This document shows, piece after piece, positions 8,216 through 57,627 of a stretch of DNA of 64,000 nt (the first letter of the stretch is position 1; each line of letters starts with the position of its first letter). This DNA comes from Candidatus Jettenia caeni (GTDB taxonomy: Bacteria > Planctomycetota > Brocadiia > Brocadiales > Brocadiaceae): NCBI GenBank assembly GCA_000296795.1, contig BAFH01000004.1, forward strand, positions 1,054,001 to 1,118,000, given 5' to 3'. The position numbers and the translations under genes were made by a program. Below the pieces are notes generated by a model. That model was not told the origin of the DNA. It ran no database searches and saw only the letters and a program-made list of their open reading frames with translations.

Positions 8216-9103
8216 ATGGAAAATGCCATACGCAAGGCAAGTATACTGATAGAAGCCACTCCTTATATACGATCTTTTAAAGATAAAATTGTAGTTATTA
8301 AGTTTGGTGGAGGAGCAATGTCCAGCGATGAAGTGCTGACAAATGTACTCCAGGATATTGTGTTTATGAAAACCGTTGGCATTATACCCATACTGGTTCA
8401 TGGTGGCGGCCCTCATATTACCCAGGAAATGACAAGAAGGGGTTTGAGTCCAAAATTTATTGAGGGACATAGAATTACCGATGTTGAGACCTTAGAAATA
8501 GCAAAAGACATCCTCATAAATCAAATAAGCGCTTCTATCGTAAAGAAAATCTCTGAATTAGGTAATGAGGCAACCTGCATTTGGGAAAATGGATACTGTC
8601 CAATAAAGGCAGAGAAATATTATATCGAGACAAAAGCACATGATGGTACGTTTAAAAGATTAGATATTGGCTTTGTAGGCAAGGTAACATCGATCGATAA
8701 AGATAGATTCTTAAGTTTATGTAATACACGCACAATTCCCATTGTTCCTCCTATTGCAAAAGGAACAAATGGGAATGCCTATAACGTAAATGCAGATAAT
8801 GTGGCCGCATTTATCGCAGAATCACTTAAAGCAGAAAAACTGGTCTTTCTCTCGAATACCCATGGCATTATGACAAGACCGGGCGATGAAACCTCATTGG
8901 CTTCTACACTGCATGAGAATGAAGTTCATGAGCTTATTGATAAAAAGATAATTAGTGGTGGTATGCTTCCTAAGGCGTTAGCATGCATTAGTGCGGTTAA
9001 AGCGGGAGTGAAAAAAGCACACATCATTAATGGATTAATTCCCCATGCGCTTTTATTGGAAATTTTTACTGATAAAGGCGTTGGAACACAAATCATTGTA
9101 TAG
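8216..9103 (+). CDS. argB: Acetylglutamate kinase ArgB
   Basis: A 295-residue amino-acid kinase that phosphorylates N-acetylglutamate, the second step of arginine synthesis. It has the phosphate-binding KFGGGAM near residue 30, HGGGPHITQEM (substrate side), and the C-terminal ISGGMLPK and GVGTQI motifs. A leading helix of about 25 residues (ENAIRKASILIEATPYI) precedes the first strand; in arginine-inhibited kinases of this family such a helix builds the hexamer and the arginine site, so feedback inhibition is likely. argD and argF lie 4.6 kb downstream beyond the Mla cluster; argC and argJ are not in the window. Confidence 0.96.
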   Translation: MENAIRKASILIEATPYIRSFKDKIVVIKFGGGAMSSDEVLTNVLQDIVFMKTVGIIPILVHGGGPHITQEMTRRGLSPKFIEGHRITDVETLEIAKDILINQISASIVKKISELGNEATCIWENGYCPIKAEKYYIETKAHDGTFKRLDIGFVGKVTSIDKDRFLSLCNTRTIPIVPPIAKGTNGNAYNVNADNVAAFIAESLKAEKLVFLSNTHGIMTRPGDETSLASTLHENEVHELIDKKIISGGMLPKALACISAVKAGVKKAHIINGLIPHALLLEIFTDKGVGTQIIV

Positions 9104-13678: not shown

Positions 13679-14860
13679 ATGAACACACAAGAGATAAAAG
13701 AAGTGTATGACAAGTACGTTATTCCGAATTATATTCGGAACCCTATTCTCTTAGAGAAAGGTAGCGGTGTCGATGTGTGGGATGCAGAAGGCAAACGCTA
13801 TCTTGACCTCTTCTCAGGCTGGGCAGTAAGCTTACTTGGTCACTGCCACCCTCATGTTGTAGAGGCTATTCAACGTCAGGCTGCCAAATTACAACATGCC
13901 CCGAATATTTATTACACAGAACCACAGGGTTTACTGGCAAAGCACATATCAGAAAAATCTTTTGGAGGGCAGTGCTTCTTTTGCAACAGCGGAGCTGAAG
14001 CTAATGAGGCAGCAATTAAACTTGCCCGTATCCATAATTCTCATACAGGAAAATATAAAATAATCACGTTTGCCGATTCATTTCACGGCAGGACAATCGC
14101 TACGGTTACCGCAACCGCACAGCCGAAGTATCATAAGGGCTTTGCGCCACTCGTCGAAGGATTTTCCTATGTTCCTTTTAATGATCTGGAAGCATTAAAA
14201 AAATCAGTAGATGATAAGACCTGTGCCATTATGCTGGAACCGATTCAGGGCGAAGGCGGAATTAATATCGCTACCAAAGATTTTCTGCAAGGTGTGAGAA
14301 AACTGTGTAACGAGAAAGGATTGTTGCTTATCCTTGATGAGGTACAATGTGGTATGGGCAGGACTGGAAAATATTTTGCCTATCAGCATTACGGCATAGA
14401 ACCGGATATTATGTCGCTGGCAAAGGCGCTTGGCGGCGGTGTAGCCATTGGAGCTATGGTAGCCGGAAAAGAGATTGCAAAAAGTCTTGTCCCCGGCAGC
14501 CATGCTTCTACGTTTGGGGGAAATCCGCTGGCATGCGCAGCAGCAATAGCAGTGTTTGAAACAATAGAAAAAGAAAACTTGCTCAATAATGCAAAAGAAA
14601 TGGGAAGCTATTCCGTAGAGCAATTAAAATCCCTTCAGAAGACGCAGGGAATTATCCGTGAAGTTCGCGGTATAGGTCTCATGATCGGAATTGAACTCAC
14701 GGTGAATGGCGCAGACCTCATTAAAAAATGTATCCAGGCAGGTTTGTTCCTCAATTGTACCCATGATAAAGTTATTCGATTTATGCCGCCACTTAACGTT
14801 AAAAAACAGCATATTGATGAAGGGCTAAATATTTTAAAAACGGTTCTTTCTAAACCTTAA
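13679..14860 (+). CDS. argD: Acetylornithine aminotransferase ArgD
   Basis: A 393-residue fold-type I PLP enzyme that converts N-acetylglutamate semialdehyde to N-acetylornithine with glutamate. Class III aminotransferase marks are present: FSGWAVSLLGHCHP, FCNSGAEANEAAIKLAR (101-117), FHGRT (135-139), ILDEVQCGMGRTG (218-230, D220 contacts the pyridine N) and the PLP lysine K249 in SLAKALGGG. Length is normal. The next gene, argF, starts 18 nt after its stop, so the two form an arginine operon. Confidence 0.95.
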   Translation: MNTQEIKEVYDKYVIPNYIRNPILLEKGSGVDVWDAEGKRYLDLFSGWAVSLLGHCHPHVVEAIQRQAAKLQHAPNIYYTEPQGLLAKHISEKSFGGQCFFCNSGAEANEAAIKLARIHNSHTGKYKIITFADSFHGRTIATVTATAQPKYHKGFAPLVEGFSYVPFNDLEALKKSVDDKTCAIMLEPIQGEGGINIATKDFLQGVRKLCNEKGLLLILDEVQCGMGRTGKYFAYQHYGIEPDIMSLAKALGGGVAIGAMVAGKEIAKSLVPGSHASTFGGNPLACAAAIAVFETIEKENLLNNAKEMGSYSVEQLKSLQKTQGIIREVRGIGLMIGIELTVNGADLIKKCIQAGLFLNCTHDKVIRFMPPLNVKKQHIDEGLNILKTVLSKP

Positions 14861-14878: not shown

Positions 14879-15802
14879 ATGAAATGTAAGGATTTAATTT
14901 CAATCGCAGAACTTACACCATCCGATATTGAGGAAATATTTAGCGTTACCAGAGAGTTAAAAGAATGGCACAGTAAGGGGTATGATGAAAAGTGCCTGAG
15001 TGGAAAAACCCTGGGGATGATTTTCGAGAAGAGTTCCATGCGCACGCGCGTTTCTTTTGAAGTAGCAATGGTACAACTCGGTGGTCATCCTATCTATCTG
15101 ACCCAAAATGATATCAATCTGGGAAAAAGGGAGACGGTAAAAGACGGCGCCAGGGTGCTATCACGATATGTAGATGGCATTGTTATCCGCACCTTTAGTC
15201 AGGAAGTAATTCAGGAACTTGCCCGGTATGCTACCGTACCTGTTATTAATGCTTTATCGGATTATCTTCATCCATGCCAGGCGCTCAGTGATCTGTATAC
15301 TATTCAGGAAAAATTTGGCGCCTATACCAATATAAAGATAGTCTTTATCGGGGATGGGAATAATGTTGCACGCTCTCTGGCACAGATCAGTGCAAAGCTT
15401 GGTATCCCGTTCCATATTGCCTCTCCAAAAGGATATGAGCTTACATCAGATTTTACTTCTCAAGTGAAACAGATGACCGATAGGAGCGATATACTGCATC
15501 TCTACCAGGACCCCAAAGAAGCTGCTGAGAATGCGAATATACTCTATACAGATACCTGGGTTAGCATGGGGCAAGAAGCTGAAGCGCAAATACGAAAACA
15601 AGCCTTTAAGGGCTTTCAAATCAATAGTGATCTTTTAAAGGTGGCAAAAGACGATGTCAAGGTAATGCATTGCCTGCCGGCTCATCGGGGAGAAGAAATA
15701 ACTGATGAAGTTATTGATGGTCAGCATTCTATTGTATATGATCAGGCTGAAAACAGACTTCATCTGGAAAAGGCGCTTTTGAAGCTCCTGCTGCGCAGAT
15801 AA
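14879..15802 (+). CDS. argF: Ornithine carbamoyltransferase ArgF
   Basis: A 307-residue transferase making citrulline from ornithine and carbamoyl phosphate. The carbamoyl-phosphate loop is SSMRTR at 52-57 (the usual STRTR with Met in place of Thr, a known variation), HPCQ is at 131-134, the ornithine-side DxxxSMG motif appears as DTWVSMGQE, and the HCLPAHRGEE loop near residue 265 supplies the catalytic Cys. Followed by a short region of tiny coupled reading frames and then rph. Confidence 0.95.
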   Translation: MKCKDLISIAELTPSDIEEIFSVTRELKEWHSKGYDEKCLSGKTLGMIFEKSSMRTRVSFEVAMVQLGGHPIYLTQNDINLGKRETVKDGARVLSRYVDGIVIRTFSQEVIQELARYATVPVINALSDYLHPCQALSDLYTIQEKFGAYTNIKIVFIGDGNNVARSLAQISAKLGIPFHIASPKGYELTSDFTSQVKQMTDRSDILHLYQDPKEAAENANILYTDTWVSMGQEAEAQIRKQAFKGFQINSDLLKVAKDDVKVMHCLPAHRGEEITDEVIDGQHSIVYDQAENRLHLEKALLKLLLRR

Positions 15803-45463: not shown

Positions 45464-46945
45464 ATGAAAATTTTATTATGTTCTATGCCAGATACAGTAC
45501 CCCAATTCTCTGCCAAGACGTGGAGAGCACCTAATCTCGCTATCTCTTCTATTGCTGGAAATATTCAATCACACCACGAAATTGCTTTGGCTGATTTAAT
45601 ATTAAAAAGAAAAACTTTACTATCTTCAATAAGAGACATTATTCAAGACTACCAGCCTGATATAGTAGGACTTAGTGCCATGACCTTTCAGTTTAATACA
45701 GCCCAAAGGATTGCAGATTTCATAAGAAGCTCACAACCGAATATTAAAATTGCCATCGGCGGTTATCATGCTACTCTTATGTATGAGGAAATTGCGTCTT
45801 CCGATAAGGGTAAAGTATTTGATTATATCATACGCGGAGAGGGAGAAACAACCTTTCGCGAAGTATTGGATGCCATTGAAGGAAAACAGAGATGGGAGAA
45901 TATCCCCGGTCTATCCTATCAGGACAATGGTAATTTTATTCATAATATTCCAAGGCCCTTAGAAAATTTGGATACCTTACCACTTCCGCGCCGGGATGTA
46001 CGTATTTGGAATGGTTATCTGTTTTCCGGGAAAGCCTTAGATATGGTTGAAACATCTCGTGGCTGTACGATGACCTGTAACTTCTGTAGCATGAATCAGA
46101 TGTACGGGCGTACATTCAGGATATACAGCTTTGAGAGAGTTATGCTTGACTTAACAAATGCGAAAAAAGCAGGGGCAAAGTACATAGCTTTTGCGGATGA
46201 TAATATTACTCTAAATGTAAAAAGGTTTGAATCTTTATGCGATGCAATTGTAGCTGCCGGACATAACGATCTGTGTTATATAGTTCAAGCAAGTACTACA
46301 GGTATAGCGTCTTCCCCAACACTGGCTCAAAAAATGGCCCGTGCAGGAATTCAGATCGTATTTTTAGGAATCGAGAATGTATCTGAGCGTAATCTGAAGA
46401 TGATGAATAAAGGAAATCTCTTAGAAAAAACAAAAAAGGCAATTGAATACCTTCACAACAATAACATCCTCATTGTAGGCGGTATGATTCTTGGTCATCC
46501 AGAAGATAAGGAAGAAGATATAGCACAGAATTTTGAATTCTTTGATAAGGCAAATATAGATTTTTATGGCGAACAAATTATCACCCCTTATCCCAAAACA
46601 GGCATGCGAGATATTTTAATCAAAGAGGGTTTAGTTACCAATAGTTATGATTACAGTAAGTACAACGGTTTTTGGGCAAATGTTAAAACAAAATATCTTT
46701 CATCAGAAGATTTACAGTTTTTGCGTTGGAAATATAAGCGTAAGTACTCTACTTTTTTTAAAACAACTCCTGTGTTTAAAACTATTTTCCCCGGAGTCAA
46801 CCTCCTGCGAATATTCATTTTGAGACCTTATTACCGTATAAAAAATTTTATTTCCTCCCTTGGAAAAACAGAACATGATATTTTCAAAAGGGATATGAGA
46901 AAATTTATCAAAACAAATAATTTTTTTGGTCCTAATTTTAAATAA
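45464..46945 (+). CDS. B12-binding-domain radical SAM protein (copy 1)
   Basis: A 493-residue enzyme. Residues 1 to about 140 form a cobalamin-binding-like Rossmann domain (YQPDIVGLSAMTFQF, IAIGGYHATLM, DYIIRGEGETTF); the DxHxxG lower-ligand motif is absent, as in many radical SAM members. The radical SAM core carries the [4Fe-4S] triad C201-C205-C208 in SRGCTMTCNFCSM, then FADDN and GIENVSERNLKMMNKG. About 90 C-terminal residues, rich in basic and aromatic residues, are specific to this pair. It is collinear with the gene at 56164-57627. In anammox genomes such enzymes have been proposed for ladderane lipid steps; the substrate here is unknown. Confidence 0.9.
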   Translation: MKILLCSMPDTVPQFSAKTWRAPNLAISSIAGNIQSHHEIALADLILKRKTLLSSIRDIIQDYQPDIVGLSAMTFQFNTAQRIADFIRSSQPNIKIAIGGYHATLMYEEIASSDKGKVFDYIIRGEGETTFREVLDAIEGKQRWENIPGLSYQDNGNFIHNIPRPLENLDTLPLPRRDVRIWNGYLFSGKALDMVETSRGCTMTCNFCSMNQMYGRTFRIYSFERVMLDLTNAKKAGAKYIAFADDNITLNVKRFESLCDAIVAAGHNDLCYIVQASTTGIASSPTLAQKMARAGIQIVFLGIENVSERNLKMMNKGNLLEKTKKAIEYLHNNNILIVGGMILGHPEDKEEDIAQNFEFFDKANIDFYGEQIITPYPKTGMRDILIKEGLVTNSYDYSKYNGFWANVKTKYLSSEDLQFLRWKYKRKYSTFFKTTPVFKTIFPGVNLLRIFILRPYYRIKNFISSLGKTEHDIFKRDMRKFIKTNNFFGPNFK

Positions 46946-47040: not shown

Positions 47041-48243
47041 TCATGGATTGCATGCAATATAGGTAAACAGAGCTGGCCCCATATAAAGGACATCCTCGTC
47101 TAATAAAAATCGGGAGCTGTGTAACGGCAGATTCGTTCCCCTTTCTAAATTACCTGAACCAAGAAAGACATAGGCGCCTCCTATTTTCTCCAGATAATAG
47201 GAAAAATCCTCTCCACCCATTTTGGGATCTATTTTTTCTACCGACTTACTACCAAATAGTTCGATGATTTTACTTTGTATGAAATCCAATTGAGGTTGAG
47301 GATTATTCAGAAGAGGATGGCCCTTAAGATATTCAAATTGGTACGAGGCATTGTTAACAGAAGTTATCCCTTTGATAGTGTCTTCAATTAGTATGGGCAT
47401 CCTGTATCTTAATTCTTTAGAAAGGGTTCTCACCGTACCAATAATTTTGACCTTATCCGGAATAACATTAAAGGTTGTTCCCCCTGATATTTGGCAGAGA
47501 GAGACTACACAAGGGGATAAAGGATTTACTTTTCGTGATACAATAGTTTGAATAGCCAGAATGACCTCAGCGGCAATAACAACAGGATCTATACACAAAT
47601 GAGGGGTAGAGGCATGCCCGCCTTTCCCGATAATAGTAATAACAACACGATCCGTAGCTGCCATAGTAGCCCCTGCCCGTAATCCAAAGATACCAGAAGA
47701 GATATTGGGCTCGATATGCAATCCATAAATCTCATCTACATTATTTAAAACGCCATGCTCTACCATGAGTTTTGCGCCACCGGGATGTTGCTCTTCGCAA
47801 GGTTGAAAGATGAATTTTACCTGCCGTTTAAGTTTATCTTTTAACTGTACCATCAGTTTTGCAGTACCCAGGAGCATTGCCATATTGGCGTCATGTCCGC
47901 ATGCATGAGCAATCCCCTCATTTTGGGATTTAAACTCAAGATCATTTTCTTCCGTAATCGGCAAGGCGTCCATATCAGCCCTGAAGGCCACCGTGCTCGA
48001 TGCATTATCAACTGGTAAGATGCCCACAACGCCCGTTTTCGCAATTTCCGATTGTACCTGAAGTCCCAATCGCTTCAATTCTTCTCTGATAACACGGGAT
48101 GTACGTATCTCCTGAAATCCTGTTTCCGGATAGGTATGAAAATCCCTGCGCATCTGGATAATATAATCATGTATCCCTTTAGCATTTGTCAATATTTCTT
48201 CAATCAATATGTTATTTTGCATAGGTGCTTTGTAATCATTCAA
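47041..48243 (-). CDS. M20 family amidohydrolase / N-acyl amino acid deacylase
   Basis: A 400-residue zinc amidase of the M20D hippurate hydrolase/IAA-amino-acid hydrolase type. Metal-binding parts are ADMDALPITEENDLEF, HACGHDANMAMLLG, and QPCEEQHPGGAK with the catalytic Glu. The dimerisation lid domain is GKGGHASTPHLCIDPV with its His. DPKMGGEDFSYYLEKIGGAYVFLG closes the site. It is the last gene in the minus-strand set with an epimerase, DUF1611 and GcvH-like protein, 44 nt after the epimerase gene; deacylation of an N-acetyl amino acid is the natural role there. Confidence 0.9.
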   Translation of the reverse strand: MNDYKAPMQNNILIEEILTNAKGIHDYIIQMRRDFHTYPETGFQEIRTSRVIREELKRLGLQVQSEIAKTGVVGILPVDNASSTVAFRADMDALPITEENDLEFKSQNEGIAHACGHDANMAMLLGTAKLMVQLKDKLKRQVKFIFQPCEEQHPGGAKLMVEHGVLNNVDEIYGLHIEPNISSGIFGLRAGATMAATDRVVITIIGKGGHASTPHLCIDPVVIAAEVILAIQTIVSRKVNPLSPCVVSLCQISGGTTFNVIPDKVKIIGTVRTLSKELRYRMPILIEDTIKGITSVNNASYQFEYLKGHPLLNNPQPQLDFIQSKIIELFGSKSVEKIDPKMGGEDFSYYLEKIGGAYVFLGSGNLERGTNLPLHSSRFLLDEDVLYMGPALFTYIACNP

Positions 48244-48287
48244 AATACAGACAGAAAAGACATATTCTGAACATAAGGGTTAGCCGT

Positions 48288-49322
48288 TCAGGCAGTCTCC
48301 CAAACATTCCTTTTCACTACCCCCAGCCCATTACCTTCCGGCAATAGTAATTTCCCTTTATCAACTGTTACCCCCAGATAAGGATCATTGGTAACGAGCA
48401 AGTGTCCATCAAGATCAACATAGTCAACCAGGGAGATAAGATGAGCTGCCGCTGTGATAGACAGGGAACTTTCGATATTGCAGCCTATCATTACTTTAAG
48501 ATTATGAGCTCTGGCCGTATGAATCATCCGAAGGGCTTCCCGAATTCCGCCACATTTCATGAGCTTAATATTAATCCCATCCACCACACCTGATATAGCC
48601 GGTATATCTCCTGCATTTTTAACATCTTCATCTGCAAAAACAGGAATTTTTACACGATCTCTTATCCCTCTCAGGGACAAGATGTTACCAATAGGAAATG
48701 GCTGTTCCACAAGTTCAACACCAAGTTCTTCCATGATGTTCAATTTCTTTATTGCCTCATCCACCGTCCAACCTGTATTGGCATCAACACGGAAGATTGC
48801 TTTGGTAATTTTGCGCAACTCCTTAAGGATCTCTATATCATTTTTTATACCCACCTTTATTTTCAGAATGGAGAAATCCTTTACTTCATCCACCTTCTCA
48901 CACATCTTCTCCAGGGTATCAATTCCTATGGTAAATGAGGTCGCTTTTTCCCCAGTTCGATTTAAACCTAAAAGCTTATAGAGCGGTATTTTCAATTTTT
49001 TACCCACTATATCATGGAGAGCTATATCGATTGCAGCACGCGCGGCAGAATTGCCGGGGAATTTGTTTGCCAGGGAACGGGTAATATCTTCCGTTTGAAA
49101 TGGGTCTGCATTTTTTAATACATCGGTAGACTCATTACATACCGCGGCAACGCTCAATATACTTTCTCCAAAAAAACTGGTTGGCGCAGCTTCTCCAAGT
49201 CCCGATATTCCATCTTCATCTTTTAGCTCAACTACAATATTATCCTGAATACTACGAGTTTCTCTGGCAATTTTGAAGGTATGCCTCAATTTCAAACTAA
49301 GTGGACGATAAGAAAGATTCAT
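48288..49322 (-). CDS. Dipeptide epimerase / N-acyl amino acid racemase-like enolase-superfamily protein
   Basis: A 344-residue muconate-lactonising-type enolase-superfamily enzyme. The N-terminal capping domain (SYRPLSLKLRHTFKIARETRS) has the 20s loop. The barrel shows the KIKVG catalytic lysine (about residue 160), metal ligands Asp in RVDANTGWT, Glu in LVEQPFP, Asp in FADEDVKN, and the second lysine in NIKLMKCGGI. These are the L-Ala-D/L-Glu epimerase and DgcA (N-acetyl-D-glutamate racemase) patterns. Its ATG overlaps the DUF1611 stop (ATGA), implying a functional pair. Substrate by context: N-acetylglutamate or a peptide with D-Glu. Confidence 0.88.
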   Translation of the reverse strand: MNLSYRPLSLKLRHTFKIARETRSIQDNIVVELKDEDGISGLGEAAPTSFFGESILSVAAVCNESTDVLKNADPFQTEDITRSLANKFPGNSAARAAIDIALHDIVGKKLKIPLYKLLGLNRTGEKATSFTIGIDTLEKMCEKVDEVKDFSILKIKVGIKNDIEILKELRKITKAIFRVDANTGWTVDEAIKKLNIMEELGVELVEQPFPIGNILSLRGIRDRVKIPVFADEDVKNAGDIPAISGVVDGINIKLMKCGGIREALRMIHTARAHNLKVMIGCNIESSLSITAAAHLISLVDYVDLDGHLLVTNDPYLGVTVDKGKLLLPEGNGLGVVKRNVWETA

Positions 49323-50356
49323 GATAAAAGAGGTTGGATAACATCAAGAAATTTGTCCACCCCAAATTTGATGGGATCGGTAACAGGAAGTTTCGTTTCT
49401 TCCTCTACCCTTTGGATCTCCTGCAATGCATCGTGATCTGATATGCCGAGACAGTTGAGTGAGATCCCAAGCACTTTACAGGGATAAACAGGCCGTGCCA
49501 GATCCTCATAGAGTTTAATCAAATGAGGGAGCGGTATAATAGGAAAGTTACTATAATGACGTAACGTCTTTCGTGCGGGCTGATGACATAAGATTAGACC
49601 CTGCGGAGCTGAACCATGAAGGAGACCAAGGGTAACACCTGAGTATGCCGGATGGGTAATAGAACCTTGTCCTTCAATGCTAAGGAGTGAATAATGGGCG
49701 CGGTCAAGCACGAGTTTTTCAGCCGCCCCGGAAATGAAGTCAGAAAGGACATGATCTACCGCGATTCCACTCCCTTCAATCATAATACCTGTCTGCCCGG
49801 TGGCTACAAAACAGGCATTGATACCCCGCTTCTTCGCTGCATTTGTAATTTCAATAGAGGTCAGCATCTTCCCTATATTGCAATCGGAGCCTACGGTAAG
49901 GATACGCAATGCTTTTGTTTCTTGTGCCTTACCGGTTCCAATAGGGATATTCTCAGGTGGTTTGCGAATATCAAAGATCTTTACACGATGCTCCTGAGCT
50001 AATACACAAAACTCAAGATCATCACTTAAATGGGTATGGAGGCCACTCATAATATGGAGCTTATTTCTTAAAGCATCTGTGATATGATTACGCCAGTCTG
50101 CCGGTAGTATGCCGCCGGGAGGAGCAATACCGATGAGGAGTGTTGTAGGGTTCAGATGTAATAGTTCCTGGATATTGCTGACAATGGGAATTCCTTCACC
50201 AATACCAATAATTGAAATAAGATCTTTTCCCGCATTGAAACGGTCTATAATCGCAATAACTTCTTCTTTGCGATAGCGAATAACACCAACTGCTGTTTTT
50301 GCACTGAAAACGTCCAGTCTTCCTTCGGCCAATATAACAATCCTGCGTTTCATCAT
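49319..50356 (-). CDS. DUF1611 / DgcN-like P-loop protein
   Basis: A 345-residue protein of the DUF1611 family. It has an N-terminal Rossmann-like part (RRIVILAEGRLDVFSAKTAVG, IGIAPPGGILPADWR) and a C-terminal P-loop-like part whose motif is TVGSDCNIGKMLTSIEI, followed by FVATGQTGIMIEGSGIAVD and EGQGSITHPAYSGVTLG. Homologues in Pseudoalteromonas are D-glutamate N-acetyltransferases (DgcN) working with the epimerase DgcA. The neighbouring genes match that pair. The ATG at 50354-50356 is chosen over an upstream TTG that would overlap the previous gene. The reaction is inferred from family and context. Confidence 0.85.
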   Translation of the reverse strand: MMKRRIVILAEGRLDVFSAKTAVGVIRYRKEEVIAIIDRFNAGKDLISIIGIGEGIPIVSNIQELLHLNPTTLLIGIAPPGGILPADWRNHITDALRNKLHIMSGLHTHLSDDLEFCVLAQEHRVKIFDIRKPPENIPIGTGKAQETKALRILTVGSDCNIGKMLTSIEITNAAKKRGINACFVATGQTGIMIEGSGIAVDHVLSDFISGAAEKLVLDRAHYSLLSIEGQGSITHPAYSGVTLGLLHGSAPQGLILCHQPARKTLRHYSNFPIIPLPHLIKLYEDLARPVYPCKVLGISLNCLGISDHDALQEIQRVEEETKLPVTDPIKFGVDKFLDVIQPLLS

Positions 50357-50372
50357 AGGGCTCGTAGAACAG

Positions 50373-50819
50373 CTATTTTTGCTGCTTTCTCTTAACAACT
50401 TTGCTGTGTTGTTTTCTCTGCTTCAGGGGGGTGACAGGCTGTGACTTACTAATGTACGCCATGTATTGCTGCGCATTCATTAATTCGTCAAGAAGATGAG
50501 ATTCTGGTGTTACAAACTTGATTAACCAACCATGTTTGTAGGGATCATAACTCAAGATGTCCAAATTCTCAAATAGACGTTCATTTACCGCTATGACTTC
50601 GCCGCTTATAGGCGATGTAATATCAAGCAGCGTTTCTAACGATTCTACTTCTCCAAAGCAGATATCTGAAAGGATTTCATCTCCGACTTTCGGAAGATCC
50701 AGAAATAGCAATTTATCAAGTTTATTAACAATAAATTCTGTTAAACCAACGGTAATTGATTTATTGTCATGAAAAAACCATGCGTGTGCAGGGGTGTACC
50801 TTAAATATTCAGGAATCAT
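50373..50819 (-). CDS. GcvH-like protein lacking the lipoyl lysine
   Basis: A 148-residue protein matching glycine cleavage H protein over its first 120 residues: HAWFFHDNKSITVGLTEF, LLFLDLPKVGDEI, GEVESLETLLDITSPISGEV, DPYKHGWLIKF. In true GcvH the sequence is ESVKAASD with K carrying lipoate; here E62 (codon GAA) replaces it, so it cannot be lipoylated at this place. A Lys/Arg/Gln-rich tail of about 25 residues is additional. No gcvT or gcvP is near. It heads the operon with DUF1611, epimerase and M20 genes, spaced 16 nt from the next start. Confidence 0.88.
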   Translation of the reverse strand: MIPEYLRYTPAHAWFFHDNKSITVGLTEFIVNKLDKLLFLDLPKVGDEILSDICFGEVESLETLLDITSPISGEVIAVNERLFENLDILSYDPYKHGWLIKFVTPESHLLDELMNAQQYMAYISKSQPVTPLKQRKQHSKVVKRKQQK

Positions 50820-56163: not shown

Positions 56164-57627
56164 ATGAATATTCTCTTATTATCCATGCCAGACTGTGCCC
56201 CTCACTTCAATGCAAACCGGTGGAAACCACCTAATCTTGCCATTTCGTCTATTGCAGGTAATATTGAAGGCCATAACGTTTATCTGGCTGATCTTATCTT
56301 ACGAAGAACTAGAATTGCTGAAACTATCAGGGAATTGCTCCTACAATATCAACCAGATATTGTAGGATTATCTGCCATGAGTTTCCAATTCGCTACAGCT
56401 AAGAGAATAGCAGATCTTGTAAAAAGCCTCAAGAAAGATACTAAAACCGTTTTAGGCGGATACCATGCCACCTTAATGTATCATGAAATGTGCGAAAGTG
56501 ATGATTCAGGCCCTTTTGACTTTATCATTCGCGGCGAAGGAGATTTATGTTTTAATGAGTTATTAGAGGCCATAGATGGTAAAAGATCTCTGGAAAGCAT
56601 CCCAGGCATCTCATTTCGGGTTGATAACTATTTTATCCATAATCAAGCACGGCCATTAGAAGATCTTACAAAAATAAAAATTCCAAACCGTTCCCAACGA
56701 ATATGGAAGGGATATCAATATTATGGTTTCACGCTTGATATTGTGGAATCCTCCCGTGGATGTGTTATGCCTTGCAATTTTTGCAGTATGGATAAAATGT
56801 ACGGGAAAACCTTCCGAAGGTTTAGTATTGAAAGAATACTTTTAGACATTGCTAACGCCAAACAGAATGGTGCAAATTTCATCATATTCTCGGATGATAA
56901 TTTTACTTTAGACATCAAAGGATTTGAGTCCCTTTGCGATGCTATAACCGAAGCCGGGCACAACGATATCCGATACATTATTCAGGCAAGTAGCATGGGA
57001 ATTACTTCCTCTGATACCCTTATTGAAAAAATGGCTAAGGCAGGCTTTCGAATCGTTTTCCTTGGTATAGAAAATGCCTCAGAAGAAAATTTGAGACTTT
57101 TGAAAAAGGGAAATATTATCGAGAGAACCAAATTAGCTGTTAAACGACTCCACGAATACAATATTATGATCGTCGGTGGCATGATCATTGGAAACCCAAA
57201 CGATAAAGAAGAAGATATTGCAAGGAATTATGAATTCTTTGTAAATTTACAAATTGATTTCTTTGCAGACCAGATATTAACCCCCTATCCTAAAACAGGT
57301 ATGCGTGAAGAATTGCTTAATATGGGACTTGTAACAAATAAATATGACTATAGCCGCTATAACTGTTTTTGGGCAAATATTAAAACAAACTATCTGGAAC
57401 CAGAAGACATTCAATTTCTCCGGTGGAAATATAATAGAAAATATGCCAATTATATCTGCACCACCCCTGCCTTTATTAAAAATTATCCTCTTGCCTATTA
57501 TTACAGACAATATTTTCGCAGACCATTTTTCAAGATAAAGAACCGTTTGTTTCAGAATAGCATCAGCGAAAAGGAATTGTACAAAAGGGATATGGAAAGG
57601 GCAGAGGCTATGAATAAATTCTTTTAG
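56164..57627 (+). CDS. B12-binding-domain radical SAM protein (copy 2)
   Basis: A 487-residue paralogue of the gene at 45464, collinear over its whole length. The cobalamin-like domain has YQPDIVGLSAMSFQF, VLGGYHATLM and FIIRGEGDLCF. The cluster Cys are C200, C204 and C207 in SRGCVMPCNFCSM. FSDDNFTLD, GIENASEENLRLLKKGN and YPKTGMREELLNMGLV match copy 1. The C-terminal 90 residues (FLRWKYNRKYANYICTTP) are specific to the pair. There is no lipid gene on its immediate flanks; a DUF362-ferredoxin gene follows. The ATG is given by the same starting word M-I-L-L as in copy 1. Substrate unknown. Confidence 0.9.
   Translation: MNILLLSMPDCAPHFNANRWKPPNLAISSIAGNIEGHNVYLADLILRRTRIAETIRELLLQYQPDIVGLSAMSFQFATAKRIADLVKSLKKDTKTVLGGYHATLMYHEMCESDDSGPFDFIIRGEGDLCFNELLEAIDGKRSLESIPGISFRVDNYFIHNQARPLEDLTKIKIPNRSQRIWKGYQYYGFTLDIVESSRGCVMPCNFCSMDKMYGKTFRRFSIERILLDIANAKQNGANFIIFSDDNFTLDIKGFESLCDAITEAGHNDIRYIIQASSMGITSSDTLIEKMAKAGFRIVFLGIENASEENLRLLKKGNIIERTKLAVKRLHEYNIMIVGGMIIGNPNDKEEDIARNYEFFVNLQIDFFADQILTPYPKTGMREELLNMGLVTNKYDYSRYNCFWANIKTNYLEPEDIQFLRWKYNRKYANYICTTPAFIKNYPLAYYYRQYFRRPFFKIKNRLFQNSISEKELYKRDMERAEAMNKFF

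What the first reader, a model, noticed from the sequence alone, without database searches (positions are those of the whole stretch)
47041..50819. Possible N-acetylated D-glutamate route (GcvH-like, DgcN-like, epimerase, M20)
A DUF1611 (DgcN-like) gene overlaps an epimerase (DgcA-like) gene. In marine bacteria this pair acetylates D-glutamate and racemises it to N-acetyl-L-glutamate. The following M20 amidase could release L-glutamate. This would recycle D-Glu, for example from peptidoglycan or environmental D-amino acids, and would add a deacetylase to the known pair. It may also feed arginine synthesis with N-acetylglutamate, the ArgB substrate.
Basis: partly seen in the sequence, partly recalled or inferred. 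Interest (0 to 1): 0.68.

Follow-up and report, generated by a model that had tools for sequence, protein, structure and literature searches.

The report
Anammox D-glutamate salvage genes, odd GcvH
Anammox bacteria carry a tightly kept gene set, related to a known enzyme pair that turns the cell-wall amino acid D-glutamate into ordinary L-glutamate, and in these bacteria alone it comes with a partner protein that looks like the glycine-cleavage carrier GcvH but has lost the site where the cofactor attaches.

Summary
The four genes are real and read in one direction (minus strand): GcvH-like, DUF1611, enolase-superfamily epimerase, M20 amidohydrolase. The genome is an anammox planctomycete (hydrazine synthase present). 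GcvH-like, DUF1611 and epimerase stay together at all 25 anammox-order loci examined; M20 is usually next but has moved or is missing in some genomes. The DUF1611-epimerase pair is widespread, and in other planctomycetes it lies in murein-recycling clusters (AnmK, LD-carboxypeptidase, GH3, M19, M14). A D-Glu to L-Glu role is therefore well supported. The exact chemistry (N-acetyl-D-Glu or L-Ala-D-Glu) is not settled by sequence: our proteins score below the DgcN and DgcA cut-offs, true DgcA is closer to the dipeptide epimerase YcjG than to ours, and our epimerase is closest to a Bacteroides enzyme I know as a dipeptide epimerase. DUF1611 has the fold of solved DgcN, a P-loop domain whose Mg-binding Ser/Thr is always lost, which fits acetyl-CoA rather than Mg-ATP. 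The arginine-feeding idea is weak because ArgJ is present. The M20 deacetylase is plausible but dispensable. The new element is the lineage-specific GcvH-like protein, which lacks the lipoyl lysine in every copy.

The parts
50373..50819 (-). GcvH-like protein, 148 aa, without the lipoyl-lysine and with a Lys/Arg-rich C-terminal tail
   Evidence: GCV_H 1e-26; position of the lipoyl lysine is Glu in an ungapped alignment with pea H-protein; no lysine there in any of 25 homologues
49319..50356 (-). DUF1611 (DgcN-like) protein; likely true start at Met15 (50356), annotated ORF from 50398
   Evidence: PF07755/PF17396; DgcN model 285 bits, cut-off 480; AlphaFold model pLDDT 93 matches solved DgcN 7xrj at Z 39.5
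48288..49322 (-). Enolase-superfamily epimerase (DgcA / dipeptide-epimerase type)
   Evidence: MR_MLE domains; best solved relative 3iji, 267 bits; catalytic residues invariant
47041..48243 (-). M20 amidohydrolase, N-acyl-amino-acid type
   Evidence: TIGR01891 360 bits, cut-off 154; YxeP 1ysj, 270 bits; not linked, or not found, in some relatives
49319..49322 (-). 4-base ATGA overlap of the DUF1611 stop and the epimerase start
   Evidence: Sequence read directly

Best explanation
A D-glutamate to L-glutamate salvage module of anammox bacteria, working like DgcN/DgcA: the DUF1611 protein N-acetylates D-Glu (probably with acetyl-CoA held at a modified P-loop), the epimerase inverts the alpha carbon of the N-acyl-D-Glu, and an N-acyl-amino-acid hydrolase, normally the M20 next door, frees L-Glu. 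D-Glu comes most likely from the cell's own or imported murein peptides. The GcvH-like protein, with no lipoyl lysine, is a non-catalytic partner (scaffold or regulator) of the pair. Shown here: gene set, conservation, shared active-site residues, shared fold, murein-recycling neighbourhood in relatives. Inferred: the substrates, the acetyl donor, the M20 step and the GcvH-like role.
For: 67 of 100 positions invariant in five DgcN-type proteins are kept, including K34, H121, GxDCxxGK, TGQTG, D215, D220, E227 and EGQG. The DUF1611 model matches solved DgcN (7xrj) at Z 39.5 over 328 residues. In all 133 homologues the residue after the P-loop GK is Met/Lys/Arg, never Ser/Thr, as expected if no Mg-ATP is bound. 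The epimerase keeps KxK, DAN, EQP, ADE, KxxK and DxD. DUF1611 and epimerase trees co-vary over 56 pairs (Mantel r 0.88, best of 999 shuffles 0.27). Other planctomycetes have the pair beside GH3, M19, M14, and DUF1611 beside AnmK, a SIS-domain protein (MurQ by my reading) and LD-carboxypeptidase S66; family f51 has an Asp/Glu-racemase-type gene beside DUF1611. Annotated dgcN-dgcA operons stand beside D-amino-acid transaminase and alanine racemase, or a glutathione/peptide ABC transporter. The genome has AmpG, and anammox cells have peptidoglycan (PMC4432595). EC numbers and the use of the pathway are reported in PMC11747546 and PMC10845958.
Against: Scores are below the DgcN and DgcA cut-offs (285 of 480, 232 of 400). 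True DgcA groups with YcjG, away from our epimerase, so the shared substrate is an extrapolation. NagZ (GH3) and LD-carboxypeptidase (S66) were not found in this genome. M20 is unlinked in one complete genome and not found in others. No direct evidence of activity.
Confidence: 0.55

Rival explanations
1. Murein dipeptide route: the epimerase turns L-Ala-D-Glu into L-Ala-L-Glu, which a peptidase (perhaps the M20 enzyme) then cleaves; DUF1611 has another, linked role.
For: Closest solved relative is B. thetaiotaomicron 3iji/3ijl/3ijq, 41.6% identical, which I know as a dipeptide epimerase; DgcA-type enzymes are 29-34% identical. The DxD motif that binds the dipeptide amino group in known dipeptide epimerases is present. 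M19 dipeptidase and M14 peptidase genes lie beside the pair in L150. DUF1611-linked epimerases are not a clade apart from the known dipeptide epimerases (AU p 1.5e-7).
Against: It leaves the strict pairing and co-variation with DUF1611 unexplained. DxD is also present in true DgcA. Haloarchaea, which lack murein, keep the pair.
Confidence: 0.3
2. DUF1611 is an ATP-dependent ligase (BioD/CobB-like fold) that joins an acyl or aminoacyl group to D-Glu, so that the epimerase acts on that amide.
For: The C-terminal domain matches dethiobiotin synthetase, cobyrinic acid a,c-diamide synthase, MinD/ParA and cyclic 2,3-diphosphoglycerate synthetase (Z 13-14).
Against: The Mg-binding Ser/Thr after GK is absent in all 133 homologues. 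The solved homologue 7xrj is titled an N-acetyltransferase.
Confidence: 0.07
3. The set supplies N-acetyl-L-glutamate for arginine synthesis.
For: argB, argD and argF lie about 35 kb away in the same window.
Against: ArgJ, which makes and recycles N-acetylglutamate, is in the genome far over its cut-off; the arg genes are not linked to the set.
Confidence: 0.04

Closest known systems
DgcN-DgcA D-glutamate pathway (EC 2.3.1.312 and 5.1.1.25)
   Same: Adjacent DUF1611 and enolase-superfamily genes; same DUF1611 fold and core residues; same epimerase catalytic residues
   Different: Both proteins far below the equivalog cut-offs; epimerase in another branch; GcvH-like gene added upstream; M20 downstream; an anammox bacterium instead of the Proteobacteria and haloarchaea of the original report (from memory)
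L-Ala-D/L-Glu (dipeptide) epimerases: YcjG, B. subtilis 1jpm, B. thetaiotaomicron 3iji
   Same: Catalytic Lys pair, metal ligands and DxD; murein-recycling neighbourhood in relatives
   Different: Paired with DUF1611 in one operon; below the curated YcjG-type and Thermotoga-type cut-offs
Glycine cleavage H protein (GcvH)
   Same: Full-length GCV_H domain
   Different: No lipoyl lysine; basic C-terminal tail; operon with DUF1611 and epimerase instead of gcvT/gcvP; a normal GcvH with ESVKA lies beside gcvT elsewhere in the same genome

Membership tests
DgcN (NCBIfam NF041892) | Score over the curated equivalog cut-off of 480 bits | tested here: not met
   285 bits
DgcN (NCBIfam NF041892) | Fold and invariant core residues of DgcN | tested here: met
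   Z 39.5 to 7xrj; 67 of 100 DgcN-invariant positions kept, the motif residues named in the text among them
DgcN (NCBIfam NF041892) | Acetyl-CoA:D-Glu N-acetyltransferase activity | not testable with these tools
   Needs an assay
DUF1611 (PF07755 with PF17396) | Both Pfam domains over their gathering scores | tested here: met
   248 and 87 bits, cut-offs 25 and 22.6
DgcA (NCBIfam NF042940) | Score over the curated cut-off of 400 bits | tested here: not met
   232 bits
DgcA (NCBIfam NF042940) | Groups with annotated DgcA in a tree | tested here: not met
   DgcA and YcjG form a supported group that excludes our protein (quick tree)
L-Ala-D/L-Glu epimerases (enolase superfamily) | Catalytic lysines (KxK and KxxK), metal ligands D/E/D, DxD motif | tested here: met
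   Invariant in the alignments
L-Ala-D/L-Glu epimerases (enolase superfamily) | Score over an NCBIfam AEE equivalog cut-off | tested here: not met
   187 of 500 (NF041118) and 153 of 343 (NF011708)
GcvH | Lipoylated lysine in the ESVKA motif | tested here: not met
   GEVESLETLLD; Glu at the lysine position in the window and no lysine there in any of 25 homologues
GcvH | Score over the TIGR00527 cut-off (115.85 bits) | tested here: not met
   97 bits
M20 amidohydrolase subfamily (TIGR01891) | Score over the cut-off of 153.75 bits | tested here: met
   360 bits; the usual Cys, His and Glu motifs (ACGHD, EE, LHxEP, LPLH) read in the sequence
M20 amidohydrolase subfamily (TIGR01891) | Specificity for N-acetyl-L-Glu | not testable with these tools
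   The subfamily hydrolyses many N-acyl amino acids

The most novel reading that the evidence does not exclude
A GcvH paralogue that lost lipoylation has become a dedicated scaffold or regulator of a D-glutamate acetylation/epimerisation pair in anammox bacteria, a non-lipoyl job for an H-protein of a kind I do not know from elsewhere.
Probability: 0.35. Interest if true: 0.6.

Novelty: new variant of a known kind. Interest (0 to 1): 0.4.

Why it matters
It places DgcN/DgcA-like chemistry in murein recycling of planctomycetes, a phylum whose cell wall was disputed until 2015, and in anammox bacteria. It points to a lineage-specific H-protein without lipoate, which can be tested directly. It also shows that the DUF1611 family is built on a P-loop NTPase fold that has lost its Mg-binding residue, which bears on how DgcN works.

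Tried and rejected
AlphaFold of the GcvH-like protein failed (pLDDT 38). Viral contigs hold no relative of it. The DxD motif was tried as a test between N-acetyl-Glu and dipeptide substrates and rejected, because true DgcA has it too. The idea that DUF1611-linked epimerases form a clade of their own was rejected. Reverse use (making D-Glu for the wall) was considered and set aside for this genome because MurI is present. A promoter/terminator scan gave nothing above shuffles. The original DgcN/DgcA paper is not in the held library; statements about its content beyond the cited papers are from memory.

Full report
What is there. The window lies in a 4.09 Mb, 4-contig genome that carries hydrazine synthase alpha twice, so it is an anammox planctomycete; a close named relative is isolate H5_AMX3. 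On the minus strand four genes follow each other: GcvH-like (50819-50373), DUF1611 (start probably 50356, end 49319), epimerase (49322-48288) and M20 amidohydrolase (48243-47041). DUF1611 and epimerase overlap by ATGA.

Conservation. DUF1611 was found in 33 of 59 related genomes: in nearly all of the anammox family (the three lacking it are incomplete or highly fragmented assemblies) and in one sister family, whereas the two other families sampled most in the order lack it. At the 25 anammox-order loci examined the order GcvH-like, DUF1611, epimerase is unbroken. At some of these loci the upstream DUF123/MutS genes are no longer there, so the trio is kept together for its own sake. M20 follows at most loci, but in the complete genome G011 it lies elsewhere, in G007 it lies on another contig with an in-frame stop, and in G014 and G034 (incomplete genomes) it was not found. 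The trio is the core; M20 is an associate.

The GcvH-like protein. It has a full GCV_H domain, but an ungapped alignment with pea H-protein puts Glu at the lipoyl lysine. In all 25 homologues this position is Glu, Asp, Asn, His, Ser or similar and never Lys, while the neighbouring Glu residues stay invariant. A Lys/Arg-rich tail follows in the anammox family. The same genome has a normal GcvH with ESVKA beside gcvT. None of 75 named DUF1611 loci outside the lineage has a GcvH-like neighbour, so the gene was added in the anammox order. Its role is unknown; a non-lipoylated scaffold or regulator is my inference.

DUF1611. The AlphaFold model (pLDDT 93) matches Anabaena 2obn (Z 45), solved DgcN 7xrj (Z 39.5) and Thermotoga 2g0t (Z 38). 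Below these, the C-terminal domain matches P-loop NTPases of the MinD/BioD/CobB kind at Z 13-14. The P-loop GxDCxxGK is kept, but the next residue, which binds Mg in true NTPases, is Met in 126, Lys in 6 and Arg in 1 of 133 homologues. I read this as a phosphate-binding loop reused for a Mg-free ligand such as CoA, in line with the acetyltransferase title of 7xrj. Core motifs are shared with true DgcN, although the bit score is far below the DgcN cut-off.

Epimerase. All catalytic residues are present. It is 41.6% identical to B. thetaiotaomicron 3iji and 29-34% identical to DgcA-type proteins. In the quick tree annotated DgcA groups with YcjG, away from our protein, and the data reject a clade of DUF1611-linked epimerases that leaves out the known dipeptide epimerases. 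Sequence therefore cannot tell N-acetyl-Glu from L-Ala-Glu as substrate. DUF1611 and epimerase nevertheless co-vary strongly (Mantel r 0.88), which suggests that they work in one pathway; part of that correlation may simply reflect shared species descent.

Pathway. In other planctomycetes the pair lies in murein-recycling clusters: L150 has an MFS permease, GH3, DUF1611, epimerase, a serine hydrolase with PG-binding domain, M19 dipeptidase and M14; L144 has a SIS-domain protein (MurQ by my reading), a BadF-type sugar kinase, AnmK, DUF1611 (no epimerase next to it), a serine hydrolase and S66 LD-carboxypeptidase. In family f51 an Asp/Glu-racemase-like gene is next to DUF1611. Annotated dgcN-dgcA operons sit near D-amino-acid transaminase and alanine racemase (Vibrio) or a glutathione ABC transporter (Pantoea). 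The window's genome has AmpG but no GH3 or S66 was found, and it has MurI and ArgJ. The picture is salvage of murein D-Glu to L-Glu, not D-Glu synthesis and not a needed source of N-acetylglutamate.

Verdict. The part that is new is the lineage-specific, lipoate-less GcvH-like protein.

Noticed in passing
phylum search: Only 41 of 294 planctomycete genomes have MurI over its cut-off, the anammox ones among them; how the others make D-Glu for their wall is open.
   Followed up: no
L081 4857-5576; G132:C114:2413-2784: An Asp/Glu-racemase-like gene stands directly beside DUF1611 in family f51.
   Followed up: partly
L180 (G007:C61:1855-3027): M20 homologue, 84% identical, with an in-frame TAA: possibly a decaying gene or an assembly error.
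   Followed up: no
window 8216-9103, 13679-14860, 14879-15802: argB, argD and argF (by reading of the translations) lie in the same window, about 35 kb from the set.
   Followed up: partly
window 45464-46945 and 56164-57627: Two paralogous B12-binding radical SAM genes lie on either side of the locus.
   Followed up: no
L185 and L186 (G000 C1:97605 and C4:490015): Two hydrazine synthase alpha copies with identical scores in one genome.
   Followed up: no
L167: Record titled Candidatus Kuenenia stuttgartiensis whose epimerase groups with Pirellulales; probably a mislabelled bin.
   Followed up: no
Gemmatimonadota loci such as L109, L111, L126: DUF1611 without an adjacent epimerase, in conserved neighbourhoods of another kind.
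   Followed up: no
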